Positions 9,578 through 37,836 of a DNA stretch of 41,161 bases are shown one piece after another (the first letter of the stretch is position 1; each line of letters starts with the position of its first letter). The translations under genes and the position numbers were made by a program. Source of the stretch: Aquabacterium sp. (GTDB taxonomy: Bacteria > Pseudomonadota > Gammaproteobacteria > Burkholderiales > Burkholderiaceae_C); contig NZ_JACMNS010000004.1 of assembly GCF_014378415.1 (NCBI RefSeq), forward strand, positions 1 to 41,161, written 5' to 3'. The notes under the pieces were generated by a model. It made no database searches. It was not told the DNA's origin and saw only the letters and a program-made list of their open reading frames with translations.

Positions 9578-9605
9578 CCACCCGCCAAGGACAGCACACG
9601 CCCGC

Positions 9606-10239: not shown

Positions 10240-10260
10240 TAAATTTCATTGGTATGTAAA

Positions 10261-12007: not shown

Positions 12008-12033
12008 GCGGCAGATCAGCGGGCCGCATTTTT
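12008..12033 (+). terminator. Candidate intrinsic terminator after the GMC gene
   Basis: GCGGC and GCCGC form a 5-bp GC stem around a 10-nt loop (12008-12027). TTTTT follows at 12029-12033. It lies 104 nt after the GMC stop, in the convergent gap before nasR. The stem is short, so strength is uncertain. Confidence 0.45.
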
Positions 12034-12061
12034 CACGTCCGAAATTTGGGCTGCTTTTCCT

Positions 12062-13351: not shown

Positions 13352-13426
13352 GGGATGGCGGAGGGTTCACGGGCAACGACGGCCTCGATTGTCCGCGATC
13401 TCACCGCCATTTGCTGCCCTGACTGA

Positions 13427-13765: not shown

Positions 13766-13788
13766 GGTGAATTACTCCTGATGCAGGG

Positions 13789-21673: not shown

Positions 21674-22567
21674 ATGCAGTTGATTCCTTGGGTTTACACC
21701 GGTCGGGAAGGGTTTGCTTTGCGAGGGTGGCACACGCCCCCCACGGGCAAACCGCTGTTGCACTTCATCCACGGCAACGGTTTTTGCGGCAGGGTGTACG
21801 AGCCCCTGCTGACCCTGCTGGCGCCCGAATTCGACCTGTGGCTGAGCGATGCGCAAGGCCACGGCGACAGCGACCCAGGCGGGCGCTTCGTGGGCTGGAA
21901 CCGCAGTGCGGAGCTGGCCGTCGAGGCCTTCAAAGCACATCTATCCTTGTTCGAAGGCGTGCCCCGCCATGCGGTGGGCCACAGTTTTGGCGGCGTGCTG
22001 ACCAGCCTGGCGGTGGCACAGCATCCTGGCTTGTTTGACCGCGCGGTGCTGTTGGACCCGGTGATCCTGCATCCCCAAGTGCTGTGGGCCGCGCAGATGG
22101 CCCAATGGACCGGGCTGGCCGGCCACAACGAGCTGGCACGCAAGGCCAGGGCCCGGAGAAGCCACTGGCCAGACCGCGACACCGCGCGCGAAGCGCTGGA
22201 AGGCCGGGGCGTGTATAAAAACTGGGCGGCGCCCGCCCTGCAGGCCTTCGTCGACCATGCCTTGCGCCCCTCGGCCGATGGCGGCGTTGAACTGAAATGC
22301 TCACCCGACCGGGAATCCGAGGTTTTCAGCTCGGTGGCTCATGGCCTGTGGACAGCCCTTAACCGGATCGAAACCCCGGTTCAGGTGATTCATGCCGAGC
22401 AAACGTTCCCATTCATCGCGGCGTCCGTGCAACAGTGGAAATCCATCAATCCACATGTCAGCGACATTCAAACGCCGGGCGGGCACTGCTTCATGCAGGA
22501 AACACCGGTTCAAACCGCCCAAATGTTGAAAAGATACTTGATCACACAGTTTCAGGGGATGGCCTGA
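21674..22567 (+). CDS. Alpha/beta hydrolase upstream of the megasynthase
   Basis: A 297-residue alpha/beta hydrolase with an intact active site. HFIHGNGFCGRVYEPLL (about residues 34-50) forms the oxyanion-hole loop. The nucleophile elbow is VGHSFGGVL (Ser about residue 104). A candidate acid follows in LLDPVILHPQ, and the catalytic His is in PGGHCFMQETP near the C-terminus. The enzyme could be an esterase, lipase or type II thioesterase. It is divergent from the CecR-like tetR gene and ends 61 nt before the NRPS-PKS gene on the same strand. Of the three hydrolases around that synthase it is the only one with a normal Ser nucleophile. A role in product release or editing is therefore plausible but unproven. 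Confidence 0.88.
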   Translation: MQLIPWVYTGREGFALRGWHTPPTGKPLLHFIHGNGFCGRVYEPLLTLLAPEFDLWLSDAQGHGDSDPGGRFVGWNRSAELAVEAFKAHLSLFEGVPRHAVGHSFGGVLTSLAVAQHPGLFDRAVLLDPVILHPQVLWAAQMAQWTGLAGHNELARKARARRSHWPDRDTAREALEGRGVYKNWAAPALQAFVDHALRPSADGGVELKCSPDRESEVFSSVAHGLWTALNRIETPVQVIHAEQTFPFIAASVQQWKSINPHVSDIQTPGGHCFMQETPVQTAQMLKRYLITQFQGMA

Positions 22568-22628: not shown

Positions 22629-25600
22629 ATGACGACGGTGCCCATGGCCACACAAGAAATACCCAGCAGCAGGAATGTCACGACCCCACCGGCCTTGAGC
22701 CACTGGTTGCGCGCCGCCTCTGACAAAAACCCCGACGGCATCGCCCTGGAGTATTCGGAAACTCGGCTGAGTTACGCGGTCTTGTCAAACAAGGTTCATC
22801 AGCAGGCTCAATTACTGCTCGCAGCCGGGCTGGTGCCCGGTGACCGCATCGCCATCGCCGCCACCCGGTCCGCCGACACCGTGATCGCCATCCTGGCCGC
22901 CGTTGAGGCGGGCGTGGCCTATGTGCCTTTGGACCTGAGCTACCCGGCCGACCGCTTGCAGGCCATGTTGACGGATGCGCAACCCCGGGTGGTGGTAGGT
23001 GAACCTGGCGCCTTGTCAGCCCTGCAAGCATTGGTCGGCCCCATGCCCAGCCTGCATGCAGTCGCGGCCCCACAGGGCATGCCCTACGCCGCCGCCAGTG
23101 ACCTGGCTTACGTGCTGTTCACCTCGGGTTCCACCGGTCGGCCCAAAGGCGTGGCCATGGGCGACCTGCCCTTGCGCCACTTGATCCAGTGGCATGCGCA
23201 GCATCCCCGCCTGGGTCAAACAGCTCGCACCCTGCAGTTCGCGCCCTTGTCCTTCGATGTGCATTTTCAGGAGATCTTCTCGACCCTGGCGTGCGGCGGC
23301 ACGCTGGTCTTGATACCCGACAGCCACCGGCGTGATCCGGCCTTGTTGCGCCAGGCCCTGCAAACGCAAGGCGTTGAGCGCATCTTTTTGCCCTATGTGG
23401 CCTTGCAGATGCTGGCCCAGGCCGATGAAGAGGCCCACGCAGAAGGCAAGCCACCGTTGGTCCTGCGCGAGGTGGTGAGTGCGGGCGAGCAATTGCAAGT
23501 CACCCCCACCATCCGAGCCCTGTTCGAGCGCCTGCCACAGGCGGCACTGCACAACCACTATGGCCCGACCGAAAGCCATGTGGTCACCGCCTTCGAGTTG
23601 ACCGGCCCGCCGGCCTCCTGGCCCGGCATCCCGCCCATCGGCACGGCCTTGCCGCATGTCTTGGTGGCCTTGCGCGATCCCGAGACCGGCCTGCTCAGCG
23701 TGGGCGACACCGGCGAACTGCTGCTGGGTGGCGAAACATTGGCCCACGGCTATTTGGGCCAGGCCCAATTGAGTGCCGACCGCTTTCTGGACGGCCCCGC
23801 CGATCTGCCCGGCCGCTGGTACGCCACGGGCGACCTGGTCAGCCGCCATGGCGAGGGTGTGCTGACCTACCAAGGCCGCATTGACCAACAGCTCAAGGTG
23901 GACGGCTTCCGCATCGAACCCGGCGACATCGAGTTGGCCCTGATGGCCCACGAGTCCGTTCAAGACGCCGCCGTGACCGCACCCAACGTGCCCGGCTCGG
24001 GCCGCCAGTTGGTGGCCCACGTGGTGTTGCGCCCTGGCAGCCCGGCGCTGGCGCACATGCTGGGGCCGTGGCGGCAATGGCTGCGCGAGCGCCTGCCGGA
24101 CTACATGATCCCCGTGCGCTTCATCGCGCTGGACAAGCTGCCCACCACGCCCAGCGGCAAGATCGACCGGCGCAGCCTGCCCTTGCCCGCCATCGAGCCG
24201 TCAGCCAGCGCTGACTTGTCCAGCTTGCCCGTGATCGACCGGCTGCGCAGCGTCTGGCAAGAACTGCTGGGCTTGAGCGACCTGGCCGACGACGCCAATG
24301 TGTTCGATGCTGGCGCCCGGTCGCTGCTGGTGATGCGCTTCGTGGGCCGCCTCAAGCAACTCGGTTTGAACCTGTCGGTGGCCGAGGTGTACGACCGACC
24401 CACCATCGCCGGCATGCGCGACAGCCTCGAAGGCGCGGCCGCACCGGTTCGGCGCCATGGGCCCACCAGCCCGCAAGACCACGACGGCATCGCCATCATC
24501 GGCATGTCGGTGCGGGCTGACAACGCCCATGACCTGGACACCTTCTGGGACAACCTGCTGGCCGACCGAGAAGGCATCCGCCGTTTCGCGCCGCACGAGT
24601 TGGACCCGTCGGTGCCGCAAGATCTGCGCAATCGCCCCAACTTCGTGGCCGCTCGTGGTGTGCTGGAAGACGCCGACCGCTTTGACGCGGCCTTCTTCGG
24701 CATCTCGGCGCGCGAAGCCACCGTGCTCGACCCCCAGCAGCGCCTGTTCCTGGAGCTGTGCTGGTCCGCACTTGAAAACGCCGCCATCGACCCGAGCCGA
24801 GGTCAGGACCGCATTGGCGTGTACGCGGGCAGTGCCAACAACACCTACCTGCCCGCCATGCGGCAGGAAGACCCCGAGCTGATCCAGCGCCACGGCGAGT
24901 TCGCCACCATGCTGGCCAGCGAGAAGGACTACGTGGCCACCCGCGCGGCCAACCGCCTCAACCTGCGCGGCCCGGCGGTGTCCATCCACACGGCGTGCTC
25001 GACATCGCTGGTGGCCATCACACAGGCCTGGCATGCCTTGGCGCAAGGCCAATGCGATGTGGCGCTGGCCGGTGGCGTGACCCTGGTCGTGCCGCAGATC
25101 AGCGGCTACCTGCACGTCGAAGGCAGCATGGAATCGGCCGATGGCCGCTGCCGCCCTTTCGATGCCGAAGCTTCGGGCACCGTGTTCGCCAGTGGCGGCG
25201 GCGTGGTCGTGCTCAAACGCCTGAAGCAGGCCCTGGCCGATGGCGACACGGTCTATGGCGTGATCAAGGGCGTCGGCCTGAACAACGATGGCGGCGACAA
25301 GGCCAGCTTCACCGCGCCCAGCGTCAGCGGTCAGGCCGAGGCCATCGCCATGGCGCTGGACCACGCGGGCGTCAATGCCCGCAGCATCGGCTACGTCGAG
25401 GCGCATGGCACCGGCACCTCGCTGGGCGACCCCATCGAGATCGCCGCCCTGAGCCGGGCCTGGTCCCGCGATACCGCTGACAAGCAGTTCTGCCAGCTCG
25501 GTTCCATCAAAGGCCACTTGGGCCACACGGTGGCGGCCGCTGGTGTGTTGGGCCTGATCAAGGCCACACTGTCGATGCACCGCGAAATCATCCCGGGCAC

Positions 25601-28600
25601 GCTGCACTACCGCCAGCCCAACCCGCAGCTCGACCTGGCCAACACGCCCTTCAAGGTCCAGGCCGAGGCACGTGCCTGGCCGCGTGGCCCGCAGGTGCGT
25701 CGCGCGGCGGTCAGCTCGTTTGGCGTGGGCGGCACCAATGCCCACGTGGTGCTGGAAGAAGCGCCCGTGCAGGCGGTGACCGAAGACGAAGTGGCTGGCC
25801 GCTTGCACCTGCTGCCCTTGTCGGCCCGATCACCCCAGGCCGCGCTGCAGCGGGCCCAAGACCTGGCCAGCCACCTGGAGCGCCACCCGACCACACCCCT
25901 GTCCAGCCTGGTCGCCACCTTGACTCGTGGTCGCCAGCCCATGGCCCACCGCGTGGCCGTGGTGGCCAGCGATGCCGCCTCGGCCGTGGCCGCCCTGCGC
26001 GACCTGAAAGCCGCCAGCGCCGTCCCCAAGGCCAAACCCCGGGTGGTCTTCCTGTTCCCGGGCCAGGGCTCGCAGCATCCGGGCATGGCCCGTCAGTTGA
26101 TGGATCAGGCCCCGGCCTTCCGCGAAGCCTTTGAACAATGCCTGGCCGTGGCACCAGCCGATCTGGCCGCCCAGCTGCGCACCTGGCTGGTCGAGGCCGA
26201 ACCCAGTGATGCCGTGGCCGCCGCCAGCCTGGCCGAAACCCGGCACGCCCAGCCTGCGCTGTTCGCGGTGTCGTACTCATTGGCCGTTTGGCTGGACAGC
26301 TTGGGGATCAAGCCGCAGGCCATGATTGGCCACAGCATTGGCGAATACGCAGCGGCTTGCCATGCTGGCGTTTTGTCGCTGGCCGATGCCATGCGCGCCG
26401 TCATCGCCCGTGGCCAAGCCATGTTCGAGCAGCCGCCGGGCGCGATGCTGGCCGTGCGTGCCAGTGGCGATGTGGTCGGCCGCTTGCTGCCGGCGGGGGT
26501 CGAGCTGGCCGCCGCCAATGCCTCAACCTTGACGGTGGTGGCCGGTGGCTTTGATGACATCACCGCCTTCGCCACCCAGCTGGAAGCCCAGGACATCGGC
26601 ACCACGCGCTTGAAGGTCTCGCACGCCTTCCACAGCGCCAGCATGGACGGCGCCTTGCCGCAGGTGGCGCAAGCGCTGGCCCGTGCCACCCTGAGCGCGC
26701 CCAGCATCCCGGTGTATTCGTGCATCAGCGGCGCGCCCGTGCTGGCCAGTGAAGCCACCGACCCGGCCTATTGGGCCCGGCAGGTGCGCGCCACCGTGCA
26801 GTTCAGCCGCGCGGTGCAAGCCGAGCTTGCCCAAGGTGACACGGTGTTTGTCGAGGTCGGCCCCAGTCAGGCCTTGACCGCTTTGCTGCGCCAACACCGC
26901 ACGGCCGACAACACCGTGCCCCGCATCGTGGCCTTGCTGGGCCCCGCGCAAGACCCGGGCGCGCCCGCCACGCGTGCCTTGCAAGGCATCGGTGCCTTGT
27001 GGTGCGCGGGCGTCGACGTGGCCTGGCCCGTCTCTCGCCACGCCCGCCGGTGGCCCTTGCCCGCCTACCCCTTCCGGGGCGAGGTGCATTGGTTCAAACG
27101 CCGCACCGTGGCGCCTGTGGTGGCCACCGACACCCCCGTTCTTCTTCCTGCTTCGCCCGTTCCAGAGGATGTCCCGCCCATGAGCCGCCTACCCCGCCTT
27201 GAACAGGAACTCACCCGCATCCTCATGGAGGTCTCGGGCATCCCCGCCGAGTCCGTGCACCGCGACGCCACCTTTGTCGACCAGGGGCTGGATTCGCTGT
27301 CACTGACCCAGGCCACGCTGGAACTGGAGCGCGTGTTCGGCGTCAAGCTGCGCTTTCGCCGCCTGCTGGAAGACCTGGACACCGTGGCCAAGCTGGGCGA
27401 GTTTCTCGATGCCCAACTGCCTGCCGACAAATTTGCGTCGGCGCCCGTGGCCGCGCCGGTGGCGGCCGCGCAGCCCATGGTCCAGGCGGTGTTCGCCAAC
27501 ACCTTCGCGCCAGTCCAGGGCGATGCCGTCCATCAACTGATCCAGCAGCAGATGCAGTTGATGGCCCAGCAACTGGCCCTGCTGTCTGGTCAAGGCGTGA
27601 TGAGCGCGCCTGTGCTGGTTCAGACCAGTGCACCTGCACCGGCGGCCGCTTTGACCGCGCTGGACCAGCCCTCCAAAACATCCCTGCTTGAAAAGCCCTT
27701 TGGCGCCTCGGCCCGCATCACGCTGAACGCGCAGACCGACTTCACGCCCGCCCAGCGCCAATGGCTGGACGACTTCATCACACGCTACAACGCCCGCACT
27801 GGCCAGTCCAAGGCCTTCAGCCAGAAGCACCGCAAGGTCATGGCCGACCCGCGCGTGGTCACCGGCTTCAACACGCTGTGGAAAGACCTGGTCTACCCCA
27901 TCGTGGCCGACCGCTCCAAGGGCGCTCGCGTGTGGGACATCGATGGCAACGAGTACATCGACCTGCTGTCTTGCTTTGGCGCCAACCTGCTGGGCTACCA
28001 ACCCGACAGCGTGATTCAGGCCATGAAAGACCAGTTGGACCTGGGCATCGAAGTCGGGCCGCAACACCCCATGGCGGCCGAGGTGGCCGAGCTGATCTCC
28101 GAGTTCACGGGCATGGAGCGGGTGGCCTTTTGCAATACCGGCTCGGAAGCCGTGATGGGCGCCATGCGCATCGCACGCACGGTGACGGGCCGCAAGACGA
28201 TCGCCATCTTCACCAACTCGTACCACGGCATCTTTGACGAAGTCATCGTGCGCGGCACCAAGCAACTGCGTTCGCTGTCGGCCGCGCCGGGCATCCTGGC
28301 CAACGCTGTCGAAAACATCCTGGTGCTGGACTACGACAGTGAAGACTCGCTGAAAGTTTTGCGCGATCGCGGCCATGAACTGGCCGCGATCATGATCGAG
28401 CCCATCCAGAACAAGTACCCCACCTTGCAACCGCGCGCCTTCGTGCAATCGCTGCGACAGATCGCCGACAAGGCCGGTTGCGCGCTGATCTTCGACGAGG
28501 TCGTCACCGGCTTCAGGCTGGCCCCCGGCGGCGCACAAGAGTTCTACGGCGTGCGCTCCGACATCTCCACCTACGGCAAGATCATCGGCGGCGGCCTGCC

Positions 28601-31600
28601 CTTTGCCGCCATCGCGGGCGGGTCGGCCTGGCTGGACGCGCTGGACGGTGGCCACTGGCAATACGGCGATGACTCCTACCCCGAAGCGGGCGTCACCTAC
28701 TTCGCAGGCACCTTTGTGCGCCACCCGCTGGCCCTGGCCGCCGCGCGCGCTTCACTGCTGCACCTCAAGCAGGGCGGACGCCAGCTGTACGCCACGCTCA
28801 ACGGCCGCACGCAGAGTTTGGTCGATCGATTGAACAGCGCGTTTGCGTCTCGCGGCGCGCCGGTCAAGGCCGTGCACTGCGCCTCGCTGTGGCGCCTGAC
28901 CTGGGACGACAACCAGAAGTACGTCAGCCTGTTTTACTACCTGCTGCGCTTTCATGGCCTGCACCTGTACGAGCAGTTCGGCCACTTCGTCACCGAGGCC
29001 ATGGGCGATGCCGAGCTGGACCGCATCTTCACCGTGTTCACCCAATCGCTTGATGAGTTGATGGCCCTGGGCTTCATCGCGCCGCGCGAGGGCAGCACGC
29101 CACCGCCCGAGCGCGCAGCCCTGCCCAACCCCGCCCCCTTGACGCCCGGCCAGACCGAGCGTTGGCTGGCCGCCAGCTTCGACGCCAACGCGCGCATCGC
29201 GCTCAACGAATCCTTCTGCCTGAGCCTGCAAGGCGATGTCCACGAAACCGCGCTGGAAGCCGCCTTGCAAGACGTGCTGCAACGCCACGAAGCCTTCCGC
29301 ATCCACTTCGATGCGACCGAGCCGCTGCAGATCCTGGACGAACGCCACCAGCCCAGCATTGCCCGCGTCGACCTGCGCGGCCAAGCCGATGCGGCCCAAG
29401 CGCTGGACGCTTTCTGCGAGCAAGCCAGCCGCCAGGATCTCGCCCTGAGCGAAGCGCCTTTGGCCCGCGTGAGCCTGCTGCACTTGAGCGATGGCCGCGT
29501 GGTCGTGCACCTCGTGGCCAGCCACCTGGTGTTTGACGGCTGGGCCTCCAGCGTGATGCTGGCCGACCTGGCCACCGCCTACCGCGCCCGCAGCCTGGGC
29601 CTGAGCCCCACCTGGCCCGTCGCCGCCGAATCGCCGCGCCGCTTTGCCATCGACGAGCAAGCCCGTTGGGAGGGCCCCCAAGGTCAGGAAGATCTGGCCT
29701 TCTGGCGCCAGGCTTTGAGCCACGCCCCCCAGCCCATGAGCCTGGGCGACCGCACACCCCCAACGCCACGCCGCTTTGACGGCGACACCCTCCGGGCTCA
29801 AATCGATGGCCCGGTGTTGGCCGCGCTGCAAGCCAAGGCCCGCCATAACAAAGCCACCTTGTTCCAGGTCATGCTGGCCGCCGTGAGCATGCTGATCCAG
29901 CGGCGCAGCGGGCAAGATGACTTCGTGGTGTCCATCCCCTATGCCAGCCAAAGCCTGGCACGCCACGCGCCCCTGATCGCCGACGGCGTGCTCGACCTGC
30001 CCTTGCGTTTGCAATGCCAGGCGGGCCAAAGCTTCGAGGCCGTTCTCGGCCACGCCCGCAACAGTTTGATGGACGCGCTGGAACACCCCTTGGCCACCCA
30101 AGGCAGCGTGGCCCGCGCCATTGGCCGGCCCAGCATTGGCAGCCGCCCACCGCTGACCGGCGTGTTCTTCAACCTGAACCCGCGCGTGGACCTGAGCGGC
30201 TTTGCGCCTTTGCAAGCGCAGATGCACGAAGGGCGCAAGCTGGGCCTGCTCAGCGAAGTCATCTTCAACTTCTATGAGACACCGCAGGCCCTGACGCTGG
30301 ACCTGCACCACAGCACCGAGTTCTTCAGCCCGCAACGGGCCGCCGAACTTGTCGCCGACCTGCAAGCACTGTTGAGCGAGATCACGCAAACAAGTGGCGC
30401 ACCGGCAACCGCGTCACCCGCCGCCTCGCTCAGCCCCCAAGACCTGGCGCGCCTGCAAGCCTTCAACGCCACCAACACCGCCTATGAGACCGGCCTGCGC
30501 CTGGGCGACCTCATCAGCCGCAGCGCCCAACAGCACCCCCACGCCATCGCCGTTCGCTTTGAAGGCCAGGACATCAGCTACGCCCAGCTCAACCAGCAAG
30601 CCTGGGCCCTGGCCCACCGCCTGCGCGCTCAAGGCGTGGTGCCCGGCACCCTGGTTGGCGTCTGCCTGGAGCGCAGCATCGAACTGGTCGCCGCCCTGGT
30701 CGGCGTGGTCTACAGCGGCGGCGCCTACGTGCCGCTCGATCCGGCCTACCCCAACGAGCGCCTGGCCCACATGTGCGAAGACGCGTCCATGAACGTCATC
30801 GTCACGCGCCAGGCCGAATGGGCCAAGGCGGGCTCGGCCTTCCCGGCCTCGGCCTACATCCTGCGCGTGGACGAACCCGCACAAAGCACCACGCACGACA
30901 TCGCAACAACAGGCCCGCTGGTCGGCACACCACAAGACCCGGCCTACGTCATCTTCACCTCGGGCTCGACAGGCCGGCCCAAGGGCGCCATGAACGCGCA
31001 CCAGGGCATCGTCAACCGGCTGCAATGGATGCAGCAGGAATACCAACTCACCGAGCAAGACCGCGTCATCCAGAAAACGCCCTACAGCTTCGATGTGTCG
31101 GTCTGGGAGTTCTTTTGGCCACTGATGACCGGCGCCACCGTGGTCGTGGCCAAGCCCGATGGGCACCGCGACGCCAGCTACTTGGCCGGCCTGATCCGCC
31201 AGGAGCGGGTCACCGTGCTGCACTTCGTGCCCTCCATGCTGCACCTCTTTTTGGAAGAACCCGGCTTGGACCAGTGCACCTCGGTGCGGCAAGTGCTGTG
31301 CTCGGGCGAAGCCCTGCCCATCGATGCCGTCGATCGCTTCTTCGAGTGCCTGCCGCACGCCCAGTTGGGCAACCTGTATGGCCCGACCGAGGCCGCCGTT
31401 GACGTGACCTGGTGGGCTTGCCGCCCCAACGATCCGCGCCGCATCGTGCCGATTGGCCGCCCCATCGCCAACACGCGCATGCACGTGCTGGACGAGCAAC
31501 TGCGCCTGCTGCCGGTGGGCGCCGAAGGCGAGCTCTACATCGGCGGCGTCCAGGTCGGCATGGGCTACGTGGCCCGCCCCGACCTCACCGCCGAGCGCTT

Positions 31601-34600
31601 CCTGCCCGACCCCTTCAACCCCGGTGGCCGCCTGTACAAAACGGGCGACGTGGGCCGCTGGCTGGATGACGGCGCCATCGAGTACCTGGGCCGGGCCGAC
31701 CACCAGGTCAAGGTCCGCGGCAACCGCATTGAGCTGGGCGAAATCGAAACGCAACTGGCCAGCCACGCCCAAGTCAAGCGCTGCGTGGTCGTGGCCCGCG
31801 AGTTCGGGCCCGGCGATGTGCGCCTGGTCGCCTACATCGTGCCCCAAGGCACGCCGCCCGATGCGGCCCAGGTCAAGGCCCACCTGTCGGCCCAATTGCC
31901 GGAGTACATGCTGCCGCAGCACACGGTCATCCTGGACACGATCCCGCTGCTGCCCAACGGCAAGATCGACCGCAAGGCCCTGCCCGCACCCGCCGAAACC
32001 AAGGCCACGCTCAGCGCGCTGGCCCAAGCCCCGCGCAACGAGCTGGAGCAGGCCATCGCCCAGGCCATGCAGACCATGCTCAAAGTGCCCCAAGTCAGCA
32101 TTGACGACGACTTCTTCGCGCTGGGTGGCCACTCACTGCTGGCCGCCCGCGTGATCGGGCAACTCAACAAGCAACTGGGCTTGCAGCTGACTTTGCGCAG
32201 TTTGTTCGAAGCGCCCACGGTCGCCAAGCTGGCCAGCGCCATCGAGCAACAAAGCGGCGCAGCCAACCCCGCCGCCCAACGCGCGCCCATCGTGCACCGA
32301 GCCCAGCAAGGCACGGCACCCTTGACCCTGATGCAAGAGCGCATCCGCTTCATTGAAGAGTTGCAACCCGGCCGCGTGGTCTACAACGCGCCCTCGGCCC
32401 ACCGCCTCACTGGCCCCATGGACCTGGCCGCCTTCGACCGCGCCTTTCAAGAGATGGTGCGCCGACAACCGGCCTTGCGCACCTCCATCGTGCGCGAAGG
32501 CGACCACCACATCCAGAGGACCTTTGATCACATCGATGTCAGCCTGCTGCCGCTGGAAGACTTGAGCCACCTGAGTGGCGCCGCGCAAGAGGCGTTGCTG
32601 GCCCAGCGCCTGGACGCGCTCACCGCCGAGACCTTCGACCTCGGCCAGGCGCCCTTGCTCAAGATGCGCCTGTTCAAGCTGAGCGATCAGCAGCACGCCT
32701 TGTTCTTCATGACCCACCACGTGCTGTGGGATGGCTGGTCTTTCGACATCCTTTACACCGAGATTTCGGCGCTGTACGAGGCCTTCCTCAAAGGCGAAAC
32801 CCCCTCGCTGCCCGCGCCCACCATCACCTACGGCGACTATGCCCAATGGCACACCGAGTGGCTGCAAAGCCAGGAGCTCTCAGACCAGGTCGCCTACTGG
32901 ACCAAGCAGTTCGCCACCGGCCCCTTGCCCAAGGCGCCCGTGGGCGACGTGCCCCGGCAACTGGCCACCAGTGGCCTGGGCTCGACCGAGTGGATGCACA
33001 TGGACAGCACCCTCGTCGAGCAAGTCCGCGAGGTCGCCAAGCAAACCGGCAGCACGGTCAGCATCGTCATGCTCTCGGTTTACGCGGCCTTGATGTCGCA
33101 ATGGCTGGGCGACAGCCACCCGGCCATCGGCATGCCCGTGCGCGGGCGCACCGCCGCCGAGCTCGAAGGCCTCATGGGCTTCTTCAACAACATGCTGCCC
33201 ATCCGCCTGGCGGTCAACACCACCCTGAGCTGCACCGACTGGATCAAGTCCGTGCGCCAGACCATGGTCGACGCCTTTGCCAGCCAGGACGCACCGTTCG
33301 AAGTGCTCGCGCGCGACCTAGATGGTCAGCGCGCCGGTGCGGCCACGCGCCTGTACCAGGTCATGTTCTCCTTCCAGGATGCCCGCCAGCGCCAGACCCA
33401 TTGGGGCCCGCTGGCCCACGAGCGCATCCCGCTGCTGCAAAAGGGCGCCACCGAAGACCTGAACCTGTGGATGGTTGAGATCCCCGGCGGCATCGAAGGC
33501 GGCCTGCAGTACAACGCCGAGCTCTTCCAGCCCGCCACCGTGGCCGCACTGCGCGACCGCTTCCTGCGCCTGCTGAGTGAGCTCGCCAGCGATCCACGCC
33601 AGCCCGTTCGCCAGTTGCTGGCCACCAGCCCGACCGATCAGGATCAGCTCAAGCGCTTGAGCCAGGCGGCCTTGCCCAGGCAGGACGCCGCGCCTGACAT
33701 CGTCGAGGCGCTGATCGCCCACATCAAGGCCCAACCAGGCCGACCCGCGTTGCGCCTGGGTGATCAAAGCCTGAGCCTGGGCGAGTTGGGTCTGCGCCTG
33801 GATCAACTCGAAGGGCTGCTGCGCCCTCACCTGACTGGCGCACGCGACACCGTGGTGGTCCACACCACCGACCCCTTGATCAGGCTGCTGGCGGGCGTGG
33901 CAGCGCTGCGTTGCGAAGCGCAAGTGCTGCTGGGCGCGCCCCTGCCCAGCCATGCCAACCACGCCGTGTTCGTCAGCGACCAGCGACCGCCCCCTGGCAC
34001 GGCACCCTGGGTGGACACGAACACCTTGCCCGGCGCGCACATCAACGCCAGCCCCACGGAAGTAACCACACCCACCATCGCCGTGAACAAGGCGACCTTG
34101 TCCAGCCTGTGCGCCGCCCTGGCCGGCCACACGCAGGTGTTGCCCTCCGACCAAGTCATGGTGCTGGACGACCCGGCCACCGCGCCCTCCATGCTGCTCC
34201 AGGCCCTGCAAACCTGGGCGGCCCAAGCCTGCCTGGTCGTCGTGCCTGCGCCCCAGGCCCAGGACGGCCTGCACCTCATCAAGCTCATCAAGACGCAATC
34301 CATCGGCCAACTGGAAGCACCCGCCAACACCTGGCGGCGCATCCTGGCCGCCCGCCAAGGCGCCACGCTCTCGCTGACCGCCTGGCTGCAAGCCACCGAA
34401 TCGACGCCCGACTTGGTCAAGGCCTTGCTCGAGGCGGGCTGCACCGTGCTGTCCTGCCACCGCCCTGCCCCCTTGGGCCTGCCGGTCACCGCCGACCTGC
34501 TGACCGGCCGACGCGATTCTGGTGTGATGGGCCGCCCCTTGCTCGACGGCGTCCTGTCCATCGTGGACGAACAACATCAAACCCTGCTGCCGGTTGGCGC

Positions 34601-35057
34601 CGCCGGCCACCTGCAACTGACGCTGGGCAAGGCGGTGATCCACACCGGCGTTCCGGCACGCTGGCGCAACGACGGCCGACTGCAAAGCCTGGACGAGCAG
34701 ATCGAACCCACGGGCACCCGCCGCGCGGCCTCGGCCAACCCGGGCACCCCCACCGAGCAACTCATCGCCAAGGTCTGGGAAGACATCCTGGGTTTGAAGA
34801 ACATCAGCCTTCACGACAACTTCTTTGACCTGGGCGGCACCTCATTGCAAGTCATGCAAGCCGTTCAAAAAATAGAACAAGCCCTGGGCAAACGCATCTC
34901 TCCGCAGCGCTATGTGTTTGACACCCTGTCCCAACTGGCCATGGTCTACAACGCTGACGCGGACCAGGCGGCCCACCACACCACCGCCGCGCCGCCTGCC
35001 ACGGCCACCTCAGGCAGCCTGATGCAACGCATCGTCGGACTGGTCAGGCGCGCATGA
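22629..35057 (+). CDS. Hybrid NRPS-PKS megasynthase A-T-KS-AT-ACP-AMT-C-A-T-C-(A)-T
   Basis: A 4142-residue assembly-line enzyme (numbering from ATG 22629; TTG 22620 and ATG 22644 are alternatives, none with a clear Shine-Dalgarno).
A1, about 20-515, has LFTSGSTGRPKG and pocket residues DVQFVAHVV, the proline pattern.
T1 has phosphopantetheine Ser565.
KS, about 620-1047, has Cys790 (TACSTS), His926 (HGTGT) and His966.
AT, about 1138-1470, has Ser1236 in GHSIGEY and HAFHS, indicating malonyl-CoA.
ACP has Ser1556 (GLDSL).
A class III PLP aminotransferase, about 1690-2150, has Lys1984 (YGKIIGGG).
C1 has SHLVFDG (His2299).
A2, about 2620-3115, has pocket DVWHLSLVD, the serine pattern.
T2 has Ser3169.
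C2 has HHVLWDG (3363-3369).
An adenylation remnant lies at about 3685-4030.
T3 has Ser4072.
There is no KR, DH, ER, epimerisation or thioesterase domain. Predicted steps: prolyl loading, one malonate extension, amination of the beta-keto group, then condensation with serine. The order parallels MycA/ItuA. The stop overlaps the next start by 4 nt. Confidence 0.95.
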   Translation: MTTVPMATQEIPSSRNVTTPPALSHWLRAASDKNPDGIALEYSETRLSYAVLSNKVHQQAQLLLAAGLVPGDRIAIAATRSADTVIAILAAVEAGVAYVPLDLSYPADRLQAMLTDAQPRVVVGEPGALSALQALVGPMPSLHAVAAPQGMPYAAASDLAYVLFTSGSTGRPKGVAMGDLPLRHLIQWHAQHPRLGQTARTLQFAPLSFDVHFQEIFSTLACGGTLVLIPDSHRRDPALLRQALQTQGVERIFLPYVALQMLAQADEEAHAEGKPPLVLREVVSAGEQLQVTPTIRALFERLPQAALHNHYGPTESHVVTAFELTGPPASWPGIPPIGTALPHVLVALRDPETGLLSVGDTGELLLGGETLAHGYLGQAQLSADRFLDGPADLPGRWYATGDLVSRHGEGVLTYQGRIDQQLKVDGFRIEPGDIELALMAHESVQDAAVTAPNVPGSGRQLVAHVVLRPGSPALAHMLGPWRQWLRERLPDYMIPVRFIALDKLPTTPSGKIDRRSLPLPAIEPSASADLSSLPVIDRLRSVWQELLGLSDLADDANVFDAGARSLLVMRFVGRLKQLGLNLSVAEVYDRPTIAGMRDSLEGAAAPVRRHGPTSPQDHDGIAIIGMSVRADNAHDLDTFWDNLLADREGIRRFAPHELDPSVPQDLRNRPNFVAARGVLEDADRFDAAFFGISAREATVLDPQQRLFLELCWSALENAAIDPSRGQDRIGVYAGSANNTYLPAMRQEDPELIQRHGEFATMLASEKDYVATRAANRLNLRGPAVSIHTACSTSLVAITQAWHALAQGQCDVALAGGVTLVVPQISGYLHVEGSMESADGRCRPFDAEASGTVFASGGGVVVLKRLKQALADGDTVYGVIKGVGLNNDGGDKASFTAPSVSGQAEAIAMALDHAGVNARSIGYVEAHGTGTSLGDPIEIAALSRAWSRDTADKQFCQLGSIKGHLGHTVAAAGVLGLIKATLSMHREIIPGTLHYRQPNPQLDLANTPFKVQAEARAWPRGPQVRRAAVSSFGVGGTNAHVVLEEAPVQAVTEDEVAGRLHLLPLSARSPQAALQRAQDLASHLERHPTTPLSSLVATLTRGRQPMAHRVAVVASDAASAVAALRDLKAASAVPKAKPRVVFLFPGQGSQHPGMARQLMDQAPAFREAFEQCLAVAPADLAAQLRTWLVEAEPSDAVAAASLAETRHAQPALFAVSYSLAVWLDSLGIKPQAMIGHSIGEYAAACHAGVLSLADAMRAVIARGQAMFEQPPGAMLAVRASGDVVGRLLPAGVELAAANASTLTVVAGGFDDITAFATQLEAQDIGTTRLKVSHAFHSASMDGALPQVAQALARATLSAPSIPVYSCISGAPVLASEATDPAYWARQVRATVQFSRAVQAELAQGDTVFVEVGPSQALTALLRQHRTADNTVPRIVALLGPAQDPGAPATRALQGIGALWCAGVDVAWPVSRHARRWPLPAYPFRGEVHWFKRRTVAPVVATDTPVLLPASPVPEDVPPMSRLPRLEQELTRILMEVSGIPAESVHRDATFVDQGLDSLSLTQATLELERVFGVKLRFRRLLEDLDTVAKLGEFLDAQLPADKFASAPVAAPVAAAQPMVQAVFANTFAPVQGDAVHQLIQQQMQLMAQQLALLSGQGVMSAPVLVQTSAPAPAAALTALDQPSKTSLLEKPFGASARITLNAQTDFTPAQRQWLDDFITRYNARTGQSKAFSQKHRKVMADPRVVTGFNTLWKDLVYPIVADRSKGARVWDIDGNEYIDLLSCFGANLLGYQPDSVIQAMKDQLDLGIEVGPQHPMAAEVAELISEFTGMERVAFCNTGSEAVMGAMRIARTVTGRKTIAIFTNSYHGIFDEVIVRGTKQLRSLSAAPGILANAVENILVLDYDSEDSLKVLRDRGHELAAIMIEPIQNKYPTLQPRAFVQSLRQIADKAGCALIFDEVVTGFRLAPGGAQEFYGVRSDISTYGKIIGGGLPFAAIAGGSAWLDALDGGHWQYGDDSYPEAGVTYFAGTFVRHPLALAAARASLLHLKQGGRQLYATLNGRTQSLVDRLNSAFASRGAPVKAVHCASLWRLTWDDNQKYVSLFYYLLRFHGLHLYEQFGHFVTEAMGDAELDRIFTVFTQSLDELMALGFIAPREGSTPPPERAALPNPAPLTPGQTERWLAASFDANARIALNESFCLSLQGDVHETALEAALQDVLQRHEAFRIHFDATEPLQILDERHQPSIARVDLRGQADAAQALDAFCEQASRQDLALSEAPLARVSLLHLSDGRVVVHLVASHLVFDGWASSVMLADLATAYRARSLGLSPTWPVAAESPRRFAIDEQARWEGPQGQEDLAFWRQALSHAPQPMSLGDRTPPTPRRFDGDTLRAQIDGPVLAALQAKARHNKATLFQVMLAAVSMLIQRRSGQDDFVVSIPYASQSLARHAPLIADGVLDLPLRLQCQAGQSFEAVLGHARNSLMDALEHPLATQGSVARAIGRPSIGSRPPLTGVFFNLNPRVDLSGFAPLQAQMHEGRKLGLLSEVIFNFYETPQALTLDLHHSTEFFSPQRAAELVADLQALLSEITQTSGAPATASPAASLSPQDLARLQAFNATNTAYETGLRLGDLISRSAQQHPHAIAVRFEGQDISYAQLNQQAWALAHRLRAQGVVPGTLVGVCLERSIELVAALVGVVYSGGAYVPLDPAYPNERLAHMCEDASMNVIVTRQAEWAKAGSAFPASAYILRVDEPAQSTTHDIATTGPLVGTPQDPAYVIFTSGSTGRPKGAMNAHQGIVNRLQWMQQEYQLTEQDRVIQKTPYSFDVSVWEFFWPLMTGATVVVAKPDGHRDASYLAGLIRQERVTVLHFVPSMLHLFLEEPGLDQCTSVRQVLCSGEALPIDAVDRFFECLPHAQLGNLYGPTEAAVDVTWWACRPNDPRRIVPIGRPIANTRMHVLDEQLRLLPVGAEGELYIGGVQVGMGYVARPDLTAERFLPDPFNPGGRLYKTGDVGRWLDDGAIEYLGRADHQVKVRGNRIELGEIETQLASHAQVKRCVVVAREFGPGDVRLVAYIVPQGTPPDAAQVKAHLSAQLPEYMLPQHTVILDTIPLLPNGKIDRKALPAPAETKATLSALAQAPRNELEQAIAQAMQTMLKVPQVSIDDDFFALGGHSLLAARVIGQLNKQLGLQLTLRSLFEAPTVAKLASAIEQQSGAANPAAQRAPIVHRAQQGTAPLTLMQERIRFIEELQPGRVVYNAPSAHRLTGPMDLAAFDRAFQEMVRRQPALRTSIVREGDHHIQRTFDHIDVSLLPLEDLSHLSGAAQEALLAQRLDALTAETFDLGQAPLLKMRLFKLSDQQHALFFMTHHVLWDGWSFDILYTEISALYEAFLKGETPSLPAPTITYGDYAQWHTEWLQSQELSDQVAYWTKQFATGPLPKAPVGDVPRQLATSGLGSTEWMHMDSTLVEQVREVAKQTGSTVSIVMLSVYAALMSQWLGDSHPAIGMPVRGRTAAELEGLMGFFNNMLPIRLAVNTTLSCTDWIKSVRQTMVDAFASQDAPFEVLARDLDGQRAGAATRLYQVMFSFQDARQRQTHWGPLAHERIPLLQKGATEDLNLWMVEIPGGIEGGLQYNAELFQPATVAALRDRFLRLLSELASDPRQPVRQLLATSPTDQDQLKRLSQAALPRQDAAPDIVEALIAHIKAQPGRPALRLGDQSLSLGELGLRLDQLEGLLRPHLTGARDTVVVHTTDPLIRLLAGVAALRCEAQVLLGAPLPSHANHAVFVSDQRPPPGTAPWVDTNTLPGAHINASPTEVTTPTIAVNKATLSSLCAALAGHTQVLPSDQVMVLDDPATAPSMLLQALQTWAAQACLVVVPAPQAQDGLHLIKLIKTQSIGQLEAPANTWRRILAARQGATLSLTAWLQATESTPDLVKALLEAGCTVLSCHRPAPLGLPVTADLLTGRRDSGVMGRPLLDGVLSIVDEQHQTLLPVGAAGHLQLTLGKAVIHTGVPARWRNDGRLQSLDEQIEPTGTRRAASANPGTPTEQLIAKVWEDILGLKNISLHDNFFDLGGTSLQVMQAVQKIEQALGKRISPQRYVFDTLSQLAMVYNADADQAAHHTTAAPPATATSGSLMQRIVGLVRRA
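33690..34715 (+). other. Eroded adenylation domain inside the megasynthase
   Basis: Between C2 and the last carrier domain lie about 340 residues that still show traces of an adenylation fold: IVEALIAHIKAQPGRPALRL near the start, GRPLLDGVLSIVDEQHQTLL (A6-like) and VIHTGVPARWRNDGRL (A7-like). The ATP loop (SGSTGRPKG), YGPTE, TGD, GRxDxQ-K and the A10 lysine are all missing. The frame is intact and ordinary in codon use. It should not activate an amino acid, so the last carrier must be charged in another way or stay unused. Confidence 0.75.
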
Positions 35058-35875
35058 ACACCCAAGAAGGCATGAACATCTCGGTCAGCTCGTTCGGATC
35101 CCCCTCTCGCCTGTGCATGGGCGTGGTTCAGAAAGCCAGTGCCGAGGTCCCAAAACGCGGGGCCTTTGTGCTGTGCCGCCCGCTGGGCCAAGAGGCCACG
35201 CGCACCGCGGCCATGTACCGCGTGCTGTCAGAACGGCTGGCGCGCCAGGGCTGCGACGTGCTTCGCTTTGACTACCACGGCACCGCCGACTCGCCCGGCG
35301 AAGAGCAAGACCAATCCCTGAGCGACTGGGTCGAAGACACCCTCGCCGCGCACACGCAACTGCAGGCCAACAGCCCCGGCCCCATCCGCTGGTTCGGCAT
35401 GGGCCTGGGCGCCAACCTGGCCTTGCGAGCCTCGGCCCGCACCGACACCGTGCCCAGCCACCTGGTGCTGTGGGAGCCCATCATCGACGGGCTCGCCTAC
35501 CTCCAAAGCCTGTGCGACGGGCACCGCGCCGAGCTGTCGCGCGAGTTTGGCCACCCCTGGGATCAATTGCTGAGGCAAGGCCGCGTGACTGAACCCCAAG
35601 CGCCTGGCGATGTGCTGGGCTTTGCCATGGGCCCGCGCCTGGTGGCCGAGCTGACCGAGATCCGCGAGCTGCCCCTGGCGCCCGCCCTGCGCCGAGGCAT
35701 GACCCTGACCTGCGCGCTGCATGCCGAACAGCGCCAGGCCCTGCCGCCCATCAGCAGCGAGCGCCTGCACCTGCACACCGTCGAGACCCGCACCAACTGG
35801 CTGTCCAGCCAAGCCCTGGGCACGGCCATCGTGCCACCCGACGCCTTGCGCCTCATGCTGGCCGCACTTGACTGA
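35054..35875 (+). CDS. Alpha/beta-hydrolase-fold protein lacking the nucleophile Ser (Gly instead)
   Basis: A 273-residue protein that starts inside the stop of the megasynthase gene (ATGA overlap; a second ATG at 35072 is possible). The fold is recognisable from GAFVLCRPLGQEATRTAAMY, LARQGCDVLRFDYHGTADSP and DWVEDTLAAHTQLQ. It resembles the small hydrolases that accompany exosortase-type exopolysaccharide clusters. The expected G-x-S-x-G elbow reads WFGMGLGANLALRA, with Gly117 in the nucleophile position, so ordinary serine catalysis looks impossible. The tight coupling to the synthase and to the following related gene (3-nt gap) suggests a shared role, perhaps as a non-catalytic partner of that protein. 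Function is unknown. Confidence 0.85.
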   Translation: MNTQEGMNISVSSFGSPSRLCMGVVQKASAEVPKRGAFVLCRPLGQEATRTAAMYRVLSERLARQGCDVLRFDYHGTADSPGEEQDQSLSDWVEDTLAAHTQLQANSPGPIRWFGMGLGANLALRASARTDTVPSHLVLWEPIIDGLAYLQSLCDGHRAELSREFGHPWDQLLRQGRVTEPQAPGDVLGFAMGPRLVAELTEIRELPLAPALRRGMTLTCALHAEQRQALPPISSERLHLHTVETRTNWLSSQALGTAIVPPDALRLMLAALD

Positions 35876-35878: not shown

Positions 35879-36754
35879 ATGACCGAAGAACACTCCCTGA
35901 TCCTGGGCGCCGAGCAACACATCGTCGCCACCCTGACCCAAGCTTCACCGGGCAGCCCGACGCAGAACTGGTGCGCCGTGCTGACCAACTCGGGCGTCAT
36001 CCCCCGCTCCGGCCCGCACCGCATGAACGTGCACCTGGCCAGGCACTTCGCTCGCATGGGCATCCCCAGCATCCGCTTCGACATGAGCGGCCTGGGCGAC
36101 AGCCGCCGCGCGACCGGCTCGCTGCCCATGGTCGAGCAATGGGTGGCCGACACGCGCGCCGCCATGGACGAGGCCCAAGCCCGCCTGGGCTGCGATCGCT
36201 TCTTCATGGTGGGCTTTTGCTCGGGCGCGGAGGTGGCCCACCTCACCGCCCTGGCCGATGCGCGCCTGCGCGGTGCCGTGCTGTGGGATTTCTATGCTTT
36301 CCCGACGCGGCTGTCCAAGCTCTACAAACTGGCGTATCGGCTGCGCCGTGCGGGTGTCAAAGGGATTGCGCGGCGGTTCATCGCAAAGGTCCGCCCACCA
36401 ACCACGGCCGCCAGCCATGGCGAGAGCAGCGCCCGCGCCCCCGTCAATGCCTACGAAAGCCTGACCTCGGCCCCCGTCACCTCGCGCGAGGAATACACAC
36501 AGCGCTTTCGCACATTGGTGGGCCAAGGCGTGGAGCTGTTCTTTTACTACAGCGGCGGCGAACCCGAGTGGTACGCCTACCGGGGCCAGTTCCACGACAT
36601 GTTCAAAGGCGAGGCCTTCGTGCAAGGCGTGGCCTTCGAGCAACTGGCCTTGAGCGACCACCTGCTCACCCGCCAGCCTGCCCAGCAAGCCTTCATCCAG
36701 GACGTTAACCGCTGGCTGAAAGAGCGCCTGCTCAGTCGAGGGCTGAAGCCCTAA
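35879..36754 (+). CDS. Alpha/beta-hydrolase-fold protein with Cys nucleophile, candidate release enzyme
   Basis: A 291-residue relative of the preceding protein. Visible fold elements are CAVLTNSGVIPRSGPHRMNV, LARHFARMGIPSIRFDMSGL with GDS, and VEQWVADTRAAMDEAQ. The nucleophile elbow is FMVGFCSGAEVAHL, placing Cys114 where Ser is usual. Cys-type thioesterases of this fold exist in some assembly lines and can favour cyclisation, so it could release the product from the last carrier domain. A conserved-looking His occurs near the C-terminus in LALSDHLLTR. It lies 3 nt after the Gly-variant gene, the third cistron of the synthase operon. Alternatives are a type II thioesterase or an acyltransferase. 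Confidence 0.85.
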   Translation: MTEEHSLILGAEQHIVATLTQASPGSPTQNWCAVLTNSGVIPRSGPHRMNVHLARHFARMGIPSIRFDMSGLGDSRRATGSLPMVEQWVADTRAAMDEAQARLGCDRFFMVGFCSGAEVAHLTALADARLRGAVLWDFYAFPTRLSKLYKLAYRLRRAGVKGIARRFIAKVRPPTTAASHGESSARAPVNAYESLTSAPVTSREEYTQRFRTLVGQGVELFFYYSGGEPEWYAYRGQFHDMFKGEAFVQGVAFEQLALSDHLLTRQPAQQAFIQDVNRWLKERLLSRGLKP

Positions 36755-37836
36755 ACCTGTTTGCCAATCGCCTTGGCAAACAGGGTGCGGTACCAGCCGC
36801 GCCGCTGCTCGCCGATCTGAGCCATGGCCCAGGTCGTGGCCAAAACTCCGGCCAGGATCAGGGCATAGACACCCCAACCCACGCTGCTGAAGCCCAAGGC
36901 CCGGGCCAACACCAGCAGCGTGAAGTGGATCAGGTAAAAAGTGAAGGTGTAGCCTGCCAGCTTGCGGATCACCAAGCCAGCCGCCTTGCCAAAGTCAAGC
37001 CGGCAACTGGCGCAGCCGATTAAGAAGACCGCGAAAAGCACCGCCACCACATAGTCCGACAACACATGAACGGTCGATCCACGGTTGAACGGCACAGGCA
37101 ACAGCGTGCTGAACATCGCGTACAGCCGCTGAGAGGCCTCGTCGGTGACGCCACGCCAGCCGCTGGTCAAAAACAGGCCATAGCCCACCAGCGCCAAAGC
37201 CATCAAGCCAAACGCGGCCCCTTGCCGAACACGCAGCCGATCCAACTGGCGGCACAACAAAACCCCAAGCCACCAGGTGGGCAACAGCAACCAAATGCGT
37301 GGCCCCATGACCATCAACACCAGCGCCGACACCACCCAACGCGTGCGCCCACTCAAAAACGTGACACAGCCAAACAACACGTAGTACCAGACCTCGTAGC
37401 CCAATGACCAATACGGCGCCACGGTGAACGGGTAGATGGCACCGAACCAGGTTTCACCCAGAAAGAGCCAATGCAAGGGCAGGTACAGCCACAGTTTGGG
37501 ATACTGCCAAGTCGGCTCGTACTGGCTGACATCGAAGTGCATGCCGACGTGGTCCACCGCGAGCGCGAATAAAACCGCCGGCAAGGCCACCGAGTAAACC
37601 CGAGACAGCCGGGCTATCGCGTATTGCCGCGCTGTGCCATTGCTGGACTGAGTCGTGTAAGCGATCACCAGCCCCGAGATCACGAAGAAGGCCGTGACCG
37701 CGTCGTCGGCCGAACGGTGCCACTGGATGATCACGTCAGCGGGCGCAACGCCCAAACCGGCCGAGTGGCCAATGAAAACCGCCAGAGCGGCCAGGATTCG
37801 GCTCAACTCCAGCCAAATGGACAAAGTCGGATTCAT
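36751..37836 (-). CDS. Integral membrane acyltransferase (acyltransferase 3, OafA-like)
   Basis: From ATG 37836 the protein has 361 residues, with about ten hydrophobic segments. It begins MNPTLSIWLELSRILAALAV, followed by FIGHSAG, whose His is the usual conserved residue of this family. Then come AVTAFFVISGLVIAYT, RQYAIARLSRVYSVALPAV (the R-x10-R-like region) and YWSLGYEVWYYVLFGC with the conserved E. The frame extends upstream to 37929, but that part overlaps the neighbouring gene and does not look like family sequence. These proteins move acyl groups, often acetyl, onto sugars or hydroxyls across the inner membrane. Here the serine hydroxyl or an amine of the product could be the target, by inference. 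It follows the JmjC-like gene after 10 nt and overlaps the end of the convergent hydrolase gene by 4 nt. Confidence 0.9.
   Translation of the reverse strand: MNPTLSIWLELSRILAALAVFIGHSAGLGVAPADVIIQWHRSADDAVTAFFVISGLVIAYTTQSSNGTARQYAIARLSRVYSVALPAVLFALAVDHVGMHFDVSQYEPTWQYPKLWLYLPLHWLFLGETWFGAIYPFTVAPYWSLGYEVWYYVLFGCVTFLSGRTRWVVSALVLMVMGPRIWLLLPTWWLGVLLCRQLDRLRVRQGAAFGLMALALVGYGLFLTSGWRGVTDEASQRLYAMFSTLLPVPFNRGSTVHVLSDYVVAVLFAVFLIGCASCRLDFGKAAGLVIRKLAGYTFTFYLIHFTLLVLARALGFSSVGWGVYALILAGVLATTWAMAQIGEQRRGWYRTLFAKAIGKQV

What the first reader, a model, noticed from the sequence alone, without database searches (positions are those of the whole stretch)
22629..35057. NRPS-PKS predicted to make a proline-derived beta-amino acid joined to serine
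The order A-T-KS-AT-ACP-AMT-C-A-T-C follows the first subunit of iturin/mycosubtilin synthases. The starter here is an NRPS adenylation domain with proline-like pocket residues (DVQFVAHVV) instead of a fatty-acyl ligase. A malonyl AT and no reductive domains leave a beta-keto group that the PLP aminotransferase (Lys1984) can aminate, giving a 3-amino-3-(pyrrolidin-2-yl)propanoyl thioester. C1 then joins it to serine (A2 pocket DVWHLSLVD). I know of no described product with this core, but I could not search.
Basis: partly seen in the sequence, partly recalled or inferred. Interest (0 to 1): 0.88.

Follow-up and report, generated by a model that had tools for sequence, protein, structure and literature searches.

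The report
Proline-diamine peptide synthetase with dead domain
An environmental bacterium related to Aquabacterium carries one giant enzyme that probably turns proline into an unusual neighbouring-diamine building block and joins it to serine; it belongs to a large, little-studied enzyme family whose product is not known to us, and close relatives show its last part being reshuffled and losing a piece while the rest stays under selection.

Summary
The ORF is real (22629-35057, 4142 aa) and the residues quoted are right, but the domain list stops short: after C2 come a degenerate adenylation domain (A*) and an intact carrier domain, T3. Full order: A1(Pro)-T-KS-AT(malonyl)-ACP-AMT-C1-A2(Ser)-T-C2-A*-T3, then two alpha/beta hydrolases. 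Best reading: proline is extended by malonate and aminated to a vicinal 3,4-diamino acid (3-amino-3-(pyrrolidin-2-yl)propanoyl), joined to serine, and passed to a third residue on T3 that A* cannot load. The module order is not new: A-CP-KS-AT-CP-PLP1 was tabulated for Pedobacter heparinus in 2013. The AMT falls in a 49-row clade of a 65-row tree that excludes the bacillomycin (iturin-type) AMT. Congeners keep the Pro-type starter (17 of 17 readable) but vary downstream. A* is under weaker constraint (omega about 0.22) than C2 (0.03-0.08) and T3 (0.05-0.15). In 12 of 41 relatives' genomes or records the synthetase lies within 35 kb of a polysaccharide-export gene (1.8 expected), but not in this window. 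Product and role are untested; I found no description of this core in the searches made.

The parts
21674..22567 (+). alpha/beta hydrolase hyd0 (297 aa), Ser nucleophile motif GHSFG; possible type II thioesterase (inferred)
   Evidence: Pfam Abhydrolase_6 5e-15; 89% identical homologue next to the synthetase of L030
22629..35057 (+). NRPS-PKS, 4142 aa: A1-T1-KS-AT-ACP-AMT-C1-A2-T2-C2-A*-T3
22710..24182 (+). A1, predicted proline (code DVQFVAHVV, A10 Lys present)
24225..24443 (+). T1 (PCP), GARSL
24480..25784 (+). KS, Cys-His-His motifs complete
26040..26948 (+). AT, GHSIGE and HAFHS (malonyl type; meaning of the motif recalled)
27192..27416 (+). ACP, GLDSL
27831..29123 (+). class-III PLP aminotransferase (AMT), Lys1984
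   Evidence: Pfam Aminotran_3 2.9e-46; motifs; tree
29130..30428 (+). C1, SHLVFDG (second His kept; the same S-for-H in all congeners)
30501..31988 (+). A2, predicted serine (DVWHLSLVD)
32040..32252 (+). T2, GGHSL
32298..33656 (+). C2, HHVLWDG intact
33690..34694 (+). A*: degenerate adenylation domain without the A3, A5, A8 and A10 motifs; weaker constraint
   Evidence: 24% over 191 aa to an A domain, E 8e-7; omega
34734..34946 (+). T3, GGTSL intact
35054..35875 (+). hydA: alpha/beta hydrolase fold without a nucleophile (GMGLG), related to TIGR03101 (below its cut-off)
35879..36754 (+). hydB: alpha/beta hydrolase with Cys at the nucleophile position (GFCSG, Cys114), related to TIGR03100 (below its cut-off)
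36751..37836 (-). acyltransferase-3 family membrane protein; start at the Met after the GTG ORF start is inferred
   Evidence: Pfam Acyl_transf_3 6.6e-21; a homologue also lies beside the synthetase in congeners L199, L202, L203
37850..38785 (-). Cupin_8/JmjC-like protein with an HxD (HID); likely tailoring oxygenase (inferred); start inferred
   Evidence: Pfam Cupin_8 3.4e-8; 51% to L030 homologue
38854..39555 (+). Sfp-type phosphopantetheinyl transferase (start chosen by comparison with the homologue in L115)
   Evidence: Pfam ACPS 3.4e-16; 59% to the L115 homologue

Best explanation
An assembly line of a distinct 'amino-acid-starter AMT' NRPS-PKS family. A1 loads L-proline on T1; KS and malonyl AT extend it to 3-oxo-3-(pyrrolidin-2-yl)propanoyl-ACP; the AMT converts the keto group to an amine, giving a vicinal 3,4-diamino acid, the amino counterpart of the reduced proline-malonate unit of detoxin-like compounds. 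C1 joins it to serine (A2). C2 and T3 form a working last module whose own A domain is dead, so T3 is most likely charged by A2 or another A domain in trans, giving a diamino-acyl-Ser-X thioester. The hydA/hydB pair (a hydrolase fold without nucleophile plus a Cys hydrolase) releases or transfers the chain; cupin and acyltransferase-3 genes tailor it; the Sfp enzyme primes the carriers. Shown: domain anatomy, motifs, codes, conservation, dead A* beside constrained C2 and T3. Inferred: substrates, amination, trans loading, release, tailoring.
For: Anatomy and motifs. Starter code DVQ[FY][VI]AHVV in 17 of 17 congeneric synthetases with readable A1, of 19 holders (own genome counted) among 42 genomes of the genus. 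Ser code of A2 kept in two congeners. AMT motifs and clade. Omega of A*, C2, T3, A2: window-L197 0.217, 0.077, 0.057, 0.076; window-L198 0.216, 0.083, 0.077, 0.068; L197-L198 0.217, 0.042, 0.046, 0.035; L030-L201 0.228, 0.034, 0.151, 0.078. Three congeners (L210, L211, L213) carry an intact Gly-type A3 at that place; 9 of 9 with A* or no A in that place keep the T3 serine. hydA and hydB lie beside the synthetase in 17 of 17 congeners whose downstream stretch is held, hydB with its Cys in 17 of 17, and in Variovorax VAI-C, Xylophilus, Xenophilus and others.
Against: No product, expression or enzyme data. Pocket codes do not separate proline from close analogues, and no solved Pro-activating A domain was compared residue by residue. 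A* may keep a structural role (omega well below 1). The intact A3 domains of congeners read Gly while the window's A2 reads Ser, so what T3 carries is unclear. No TE domain; release by hydA/hydB rests on gene order, and neither is seen in the stretches held of two family members of another genus with this AMT (L214, L215), where more NRPS modules follow. C2 of L030 and L201 reads HHxxxDA, as do the middle modules of L204-L208 and the intact ones of L211 and L213.
Confidence: 0.6

Rival explanations
1. The peptide is not a free metabolite but an ornament: the diamino-acyl peptide is passed by the hydA/hydB pair from T3 to an exopolysaccharide or other surface glycan, as the related hydrolases of exosortase-A polysaccharide loci may do with carrier-bound groups of their own.
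For: hydA and hydB are nearest to TIGR03101 and TIGR03100, families named for exosortase-A systems. A Poly_export gene lies within 35 kb in 12 of 41 relatives' genomes or records against 1.77 expected, in several lineages. Around L031 (Pro-type code, AMT 65-66%) NCBIfam finds the XrtA export, chain-length and glycosyltransferase proteins above cut-off. In Variovorax VAI-C the order is NRPS-PKS, NRPS, PPTase, hydA, hydB, then export, tyrosine-kinase and sugar-transferase genes.
Against: 29 of the 41 show no such gene within 35 kb (some on short contigs, where it could be missed), among them the nearest relative G399; the window has none, and the own genome's Poly_export genes lie on other contigs. 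The 35-kb limit was set after seeing the distances, relatives are not independent, and the 41 were picked by me from the loci in hand. hydA and hydB score below the family cut-offs.
Confidence: 0.2
2. C2 does not use T3 as an amino-acid carrier: the A-less C-T end is a transfer or docking device, C2 joining the chain to a free amine and T3 being vestigial or a parking site.
For: A-less C-T ends recur in 14 of 21 loci (window, L030, L031 and the 18-row sister group of Pseudomonadota and one unnamed MAG; sorted by hand; 5 have an intact A3, one has C without T, one no third module), with very different second-module codes, which fits uniform self-loading by A2 less well.
Against: T3 serine is kept in 14 of those 14 and T3 is constrained (omega 0.046-0.077 in three comparisons, 0.151 in the fourth); intact Gly-type A3 versions exist at the same place.
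Confidence: 0.25
3. An iturin/mycosubtilin-like lipopeptide first subunit.
For: Same run of KS, ACP, AMT, C, A, T, C.
Against: Starter is an amino-acid A domain, AT is built in, no further NRPS subunit lies in the window, BamA AMT is outside the clade.
Confidence: 0.03

Closest known systems
A-CP-KS-AT-CP-PLP1 proteins, e.g. Pedobacter heparinus C6XWU5 (PMC3870968, section 7 with Table 2 read)
   Same: Same loading-to-AMT order; other Pedobacter loci found here (L035, L036, L037, L070) group in the same AMT clade
   Different: In these Pedobacter loci split from the next NRPS gene; the table gives only a predicted product string; other starter and second-module codes
Iturin-type bacillomycin D synthase BamA (L158)
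   Same: KS, ACP, AMT, C, A, T order, beta-amino acid logic
   Different: Fatty-acyl start (recalled), malonyl transacylase in a separate gene, AMT 44% identical and outside the clade
Microcystin McyE and puwainaphycin-type subunits (recalled); L157 Planktothrix NRPS-PKS next to a fatty acyl-AMP ligase
   Same: KS-AT-ACP-AMT in one chain
   Different: Start from aryl or fatty acids (recalled); L157 AMT outside the clade
Detoxin/rimosamide-like compounds (PMC12828459, passages seen)
   Same: Hybrid NRPS-PKS with a C-terminal proline; the synthesis there makes the unit from proline and a malonate (passages)
   Different: Hybrid carries a ketoreductase, giving a hydroxyl; here an aminotransferase and no KR
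Exosortase-A (XrtA) hydrolases TIGR03100 and TIGR03101
   Same: hydB and hydA are nearest to them, E 1.1e-15 and 2e-24
   Different: Scores 57.7 and 86.5 bits lie below cut-offs 168.45 and 202.75

Membership tests
Amino-acid-starter AMT NRPS-PKS (A-T-KS-AT-ACP-AMT) | A-T loading pair, KS, AT, ACP and class-III AMT in this order | tested here: met
Amino-acid-starter AMT NRPS-PKS (A-T-KS-AT-ACP-AMT) | AMT falls with the AMTs of those systems, apart from fatty-acyl ones | tested here: met
   49-row clade, support 100/99, of a 65-row tree; BamA and the Planktothrix protein outside. Some rows inside are split or cut genes whose starter was not in the same ORF
Iturin/mycosubtilin first subunit | fatty-acyl-AMP ligase start | tested here: not met
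   A1 is an NRPS A domain with a Pro-type code
Iturin/mycosubtilin first subunit | malonyl transacylase supplied in trans | tested here: not met
   AT at 1138-1440 inside the protein; BamD separate in L158
Detoxin/rimosamide hybrid | ketoreductase acting on the proline-malonate unit | tested here: not met
   no KR hit in P0001
Detoxin/rimosamide hybrid | proline plus malonate | tested here: inconclusive
   codes and motifs only
TIGR03100/TIGR03101 exosortase-A hydrolases | score above the curated cut-off | tested here: not met
   57.7 of 168.45 and 86.5 of 202.75 bits
Functional last NRPS module | C catalytic motif and T serine present and under purifying selection | tested here: met
Functional last NRPS module | own active A domain | tested here: not met
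   no core motifs between C2 and T3
beta-Amino acid formation by AMT | amination of the ACP-bound beta-keto acid | not testable with these tools
   needs an enzyme assay

The most novel reading that the evidence does not exclude
A family of assembly lines spread over Pseudomonadota, Bacteroidota, Cyanobacteriota, Planctomycetota and others makes vicinal 3,4-diamino acids from proline, valine or other amino acids plus malonate, couples them to Gly or Ser, in many members through a last module that works without its own adenylation domain, and in some lineages hands them through a pseudo-hydrolase/Cys-hydrolase pair to an extracellular polysaccharide: a peptide decoration of surface glycans made by an NRPS-PKS.
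Probability: 0.17. Interest if true: 0.8.

Novelty: new variant of a known kind. Interest (0 to 1): 0.52.

Why it matters
If the reading holds, the family would supply vicinal 3,4-diamino acids, a unit for which the paper searches made here showed no biosynthetic report. The genus offers a natural series at the same step: intact third A domain, degenerate A*, no A at all, an added A-less C-T module, and Gly-to-Ser exchange in module 2. That makes the question of how an NRPS module is charged after losing its A domain directly testable in vitro. The link of related assembly lines to polysaccharide loci in other lineages points to a role that usual metabolite screens would miss.

Tried and rejected
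Assembly chimera: rejected, because the left flank (TetR 94%, MFP 95%, RND 97-98%) and the right flank (OsmC-like, 97.5%) of the window both match the stretch around L030 in G399, and the whole domain order recurs in L197 and L198.

Single crossover inside C1 between the window and L030: the identity drop is stepwise (KS 93%, AMT 84%, C1 61%, then 13-62% by 60-residue block), so I call it replacement of the 3' half, not a mapped breakpoint.

A search for the nine-letter A1 code in papers gave 0 papers. A search for five codes (two further Pro-type codes, the A2 code, a Gly code and one more) gave one paper, which held only the A2 code; its passages support Ser, Gly (DILQLGMIWK), Val (DALWIGGTFK) and the Val236/Gln239 rule for Pro. 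Paper searches for NRPS with exosortase or exopolysaccharide showed nothing on point in the listings (listings only). led to PMC13252402, of which I saw passages: its three start types are alpha-keto acid, aromatic acid and fatty acyl. Structure predictions of hydB and hydA (mean pLDDT 82 and 83) gave only general esterase and lipase folds, so they do not settle the function. The P0004 search of the own genome found no second copy.

L063, L064 and L066-L073 were scanned but, L066 and L070 apart, not counted as family. The hydrolase alignments hold 10 and 11 rows picked from the hits. Gene calls are crude and cover 24 neighbourhoods. The count 14 of 21 and the residue labels were sorted by hand; meanings of the AT, C, A and AMT motifs and the Thr-like label of L040 are recalled. 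Distances were typed by hand (one is off by 3 bases).

Full report
WHAT IS THERE. The ORF at 22629-35057 encodes 4142 aa without interruption. Pfam gives two AMP-binding, two condensation, KS, AT, one class-III aminotransferase and four carrier stretches, and no KR, DH, ER, MT or TE. Motifs and chosen boundaries place A1 28-518, T1 533-605, KS 618-1052, AT 1138-1440 (HAFHS, malonyl type), ACP 1522-1596, AMT 1735-2165 (Lys1984), C1 2168-2600, A2 2625-3120, T2 3138-3208, C2 3224-3676, then a degenerate A domain (A*, 3688-4022) and T3 (4036-4106). The pocket residues it quoted are right.

SURROUNDINGS. Downstream on the same strand follow hydA and hydB, two alpha/beta hydrolases. hydA has no nucleophile (GMGLG; in the alignment of 11 the other 10 have Arg there); hydB has Cys at the nucleophile place, invariant in the 10 aligned sequences and present in 17 of 17 congeners. 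On the other strand lie an acyltransferase-3 gene and a cupin/JmjC-like gene, then an Sfp-type PPTase on the + strand. Upstream are another hydrolase (hyd0) and, divergent, TetR and an RND pump. The window is one whole contig, C143 of a 3.83-Mb, 92.5% complete assembly.

PRODUCT LOGIC. A 2025 survey reports codes with Val236 and Gln239 for 59 of 71 Pro-activating domains and names DVWHLSLVDK for Ser (PMC12283262, section 11 read and passages). The exact A1 code was in no paper of the library. It is a vicinal 3,4-diamino acid, the amino counterpart of the proline-malonate unit of detoxin-like compounds, whose hybrid has a ketoreductase (PMC12828459, passages). All this is inference from codes and motifs.

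THE FAMILY. AMT searches at E 1e-60 gave 12 of 399 genomes of the order, 24 of 399 of the family and 19 of 42 of the genus, the own genome counted in each; not every match is of this family (one search includes other AMT systems, see the tree). Many show A-T-KS-AT-ACP-AMT followed, often in a second gene, by C-A-T and a further C-(A)-T. In a 65-row AMT tree a 49-row clade (100/99) holds the window and excludes BamA of bacillomycin D and the Planktothrix protein. Starter codes are Pro-type in the window, L030, L031, L032 and L042; DALWxGGTF and DAFWxGGTF types (Val by the survey's DALWIGGTFK) are frequent elsewhere, and the second code is most often of the Gly type DILQLG. The order A-CP-KS-AT-CP-PLP1 was tabulated for Pedobacter heparinus in 2013, with related orders in Thiorhodococcus and Salinisphaera; the table gives predicted product strings only (PMC3870968, section 7). 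So the module order is not new.

THE GENUS AS A NATURAL SERIES. The nearest named relative is L030, an Aquabacterium MAG (Sphaerotilaceae), whose genome is among the window's congeners (same coordinates as G462). Both flanks match (TetR 94%, RND 97-98%; OsmC-like 97.5%); A1 is 92% and KS 93% identical, AMT 84%, C1 61%, the rest of the synthetase 13-62% by 60-residue block, hydA and hydB 33%. Of 19 congeneric synthetases 17 have a readable A1, all DVQ[FY][VI]AHVV; L200 and L209 are cut by contig ends. Of 18 with a readable module 2, three read Ser (window, L197, L198), one has two A domains in tandem (Ser then Gly, L200), 12 read Gly and two DMPQMGLVY. After C2, three have an intact Gly-type A domain (L210, L211, L213); nine have A* or no A before T3 (window, L030, L197-L203: 0 of 9 show any of the four core motifs, 9 of 9 keep the T serine); five have an A-less C-T followed by a full Gly module (L204-L208); L212 is cut.

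THE DEAD A DOMAIN. Nei-Gojobori omega for A*, C2, T3, A2: window-L197 0.217, 0.077, 0.057, 0.076; window-L198 0.216, 0.083, 0.077, 0.068; L197-L198 0.217, 0.042, 0.046, 0.035; L030-L201 0.228, 0.034, 0.151, 0.078 (8 domains compared in the last pair, 12 in the others). A* is the highest in three of the four; in L197-L198 the short T1 gives 0.428. C2 and T3 are therefore in use, and A* is under weaker constraint, though not free. The C2 motif reads HHxxxDG in the window, L197-L200, L202 and L203, but HHxxxDA in L030, L201, the A-less modules of L204-L208 and also the intact modules of L211 and L213, so DA alone is no sign of decay. Trans charging by A2 is my favoured reading and is untested.

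POLYSACCHARIDE LINK. In 12 of 41 genomes or records chosen from the loci in hand, a Poly_export gene lies within 35 kb of the AMT; 1.77 expected from genome size and gene number, and none of 200,000 draws reached 12. The limit was set afterwards and relatives are not independent (Lysobacteraceae and kin, Comamonadaceae, rhizobia and Novosphingobium, and L031). Around L031 the exosortase-A export, chain-length and glycosyltransferase proteins score above cut-off. Against this: 29 of 41 show no such gene in range, including G399, and the window has none.

VERDICT. What is worth attention is the widespread family without a known product, the vicinal diamine it should make, and the graded loss of the third A domain within one genus.

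Noticed in passing
L200 (G460:C154), ORF 5842-13878, - strand: Two adenylation domains in tandem, Ser-type then Gly-type, before one carrier domain: looks like a recombination intermediate at the module-2 position.
   Followed up: partly
L036, L039, L043 second gene: The A domain is split by roughly 400 residues before its last part; in L036 and L043 the code is DILQLGMIW, which the 2025 survey ties to Gly domains with a monooxygenase insert.
   Followed up: partly
L016:6884-7657, L018:20513-22235, L115:9418-10212: TIGR04325-family methyltransferase genes sit near several of these synthetases (5 of the 24 neighbourhoods) but none was found in the window.
   Followed up: partly
window 37850-38785 and L030:18818-19684: Cupin_8 gene conserved near the synthetase in congeners and in 6 of the 24 neighbourhoods, whose crude gene call missed the window's copy.
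   Followed up: partly
window 12062-13351 and 13789-16317, - strand: NIT-ANTAR nitrate/nitrite sensor near a NirB-like nitrite reductase: an ordinary nitrate regulation pair.
   Followed up: no
L204-L208: Synthetases of 4933-5032 aa with an extra A-less C-T module between module 2 and a Gly module.
   Followed up: partly
L214, L215: Two family members of another genus with the same Pro-type start (AMT 85-86%) continue into further NRPS modules with codes DAWQIGFDD and DAWQVGFDD, and no hydA/hydB in the stretch held: a longer product line.
   Followed up: no
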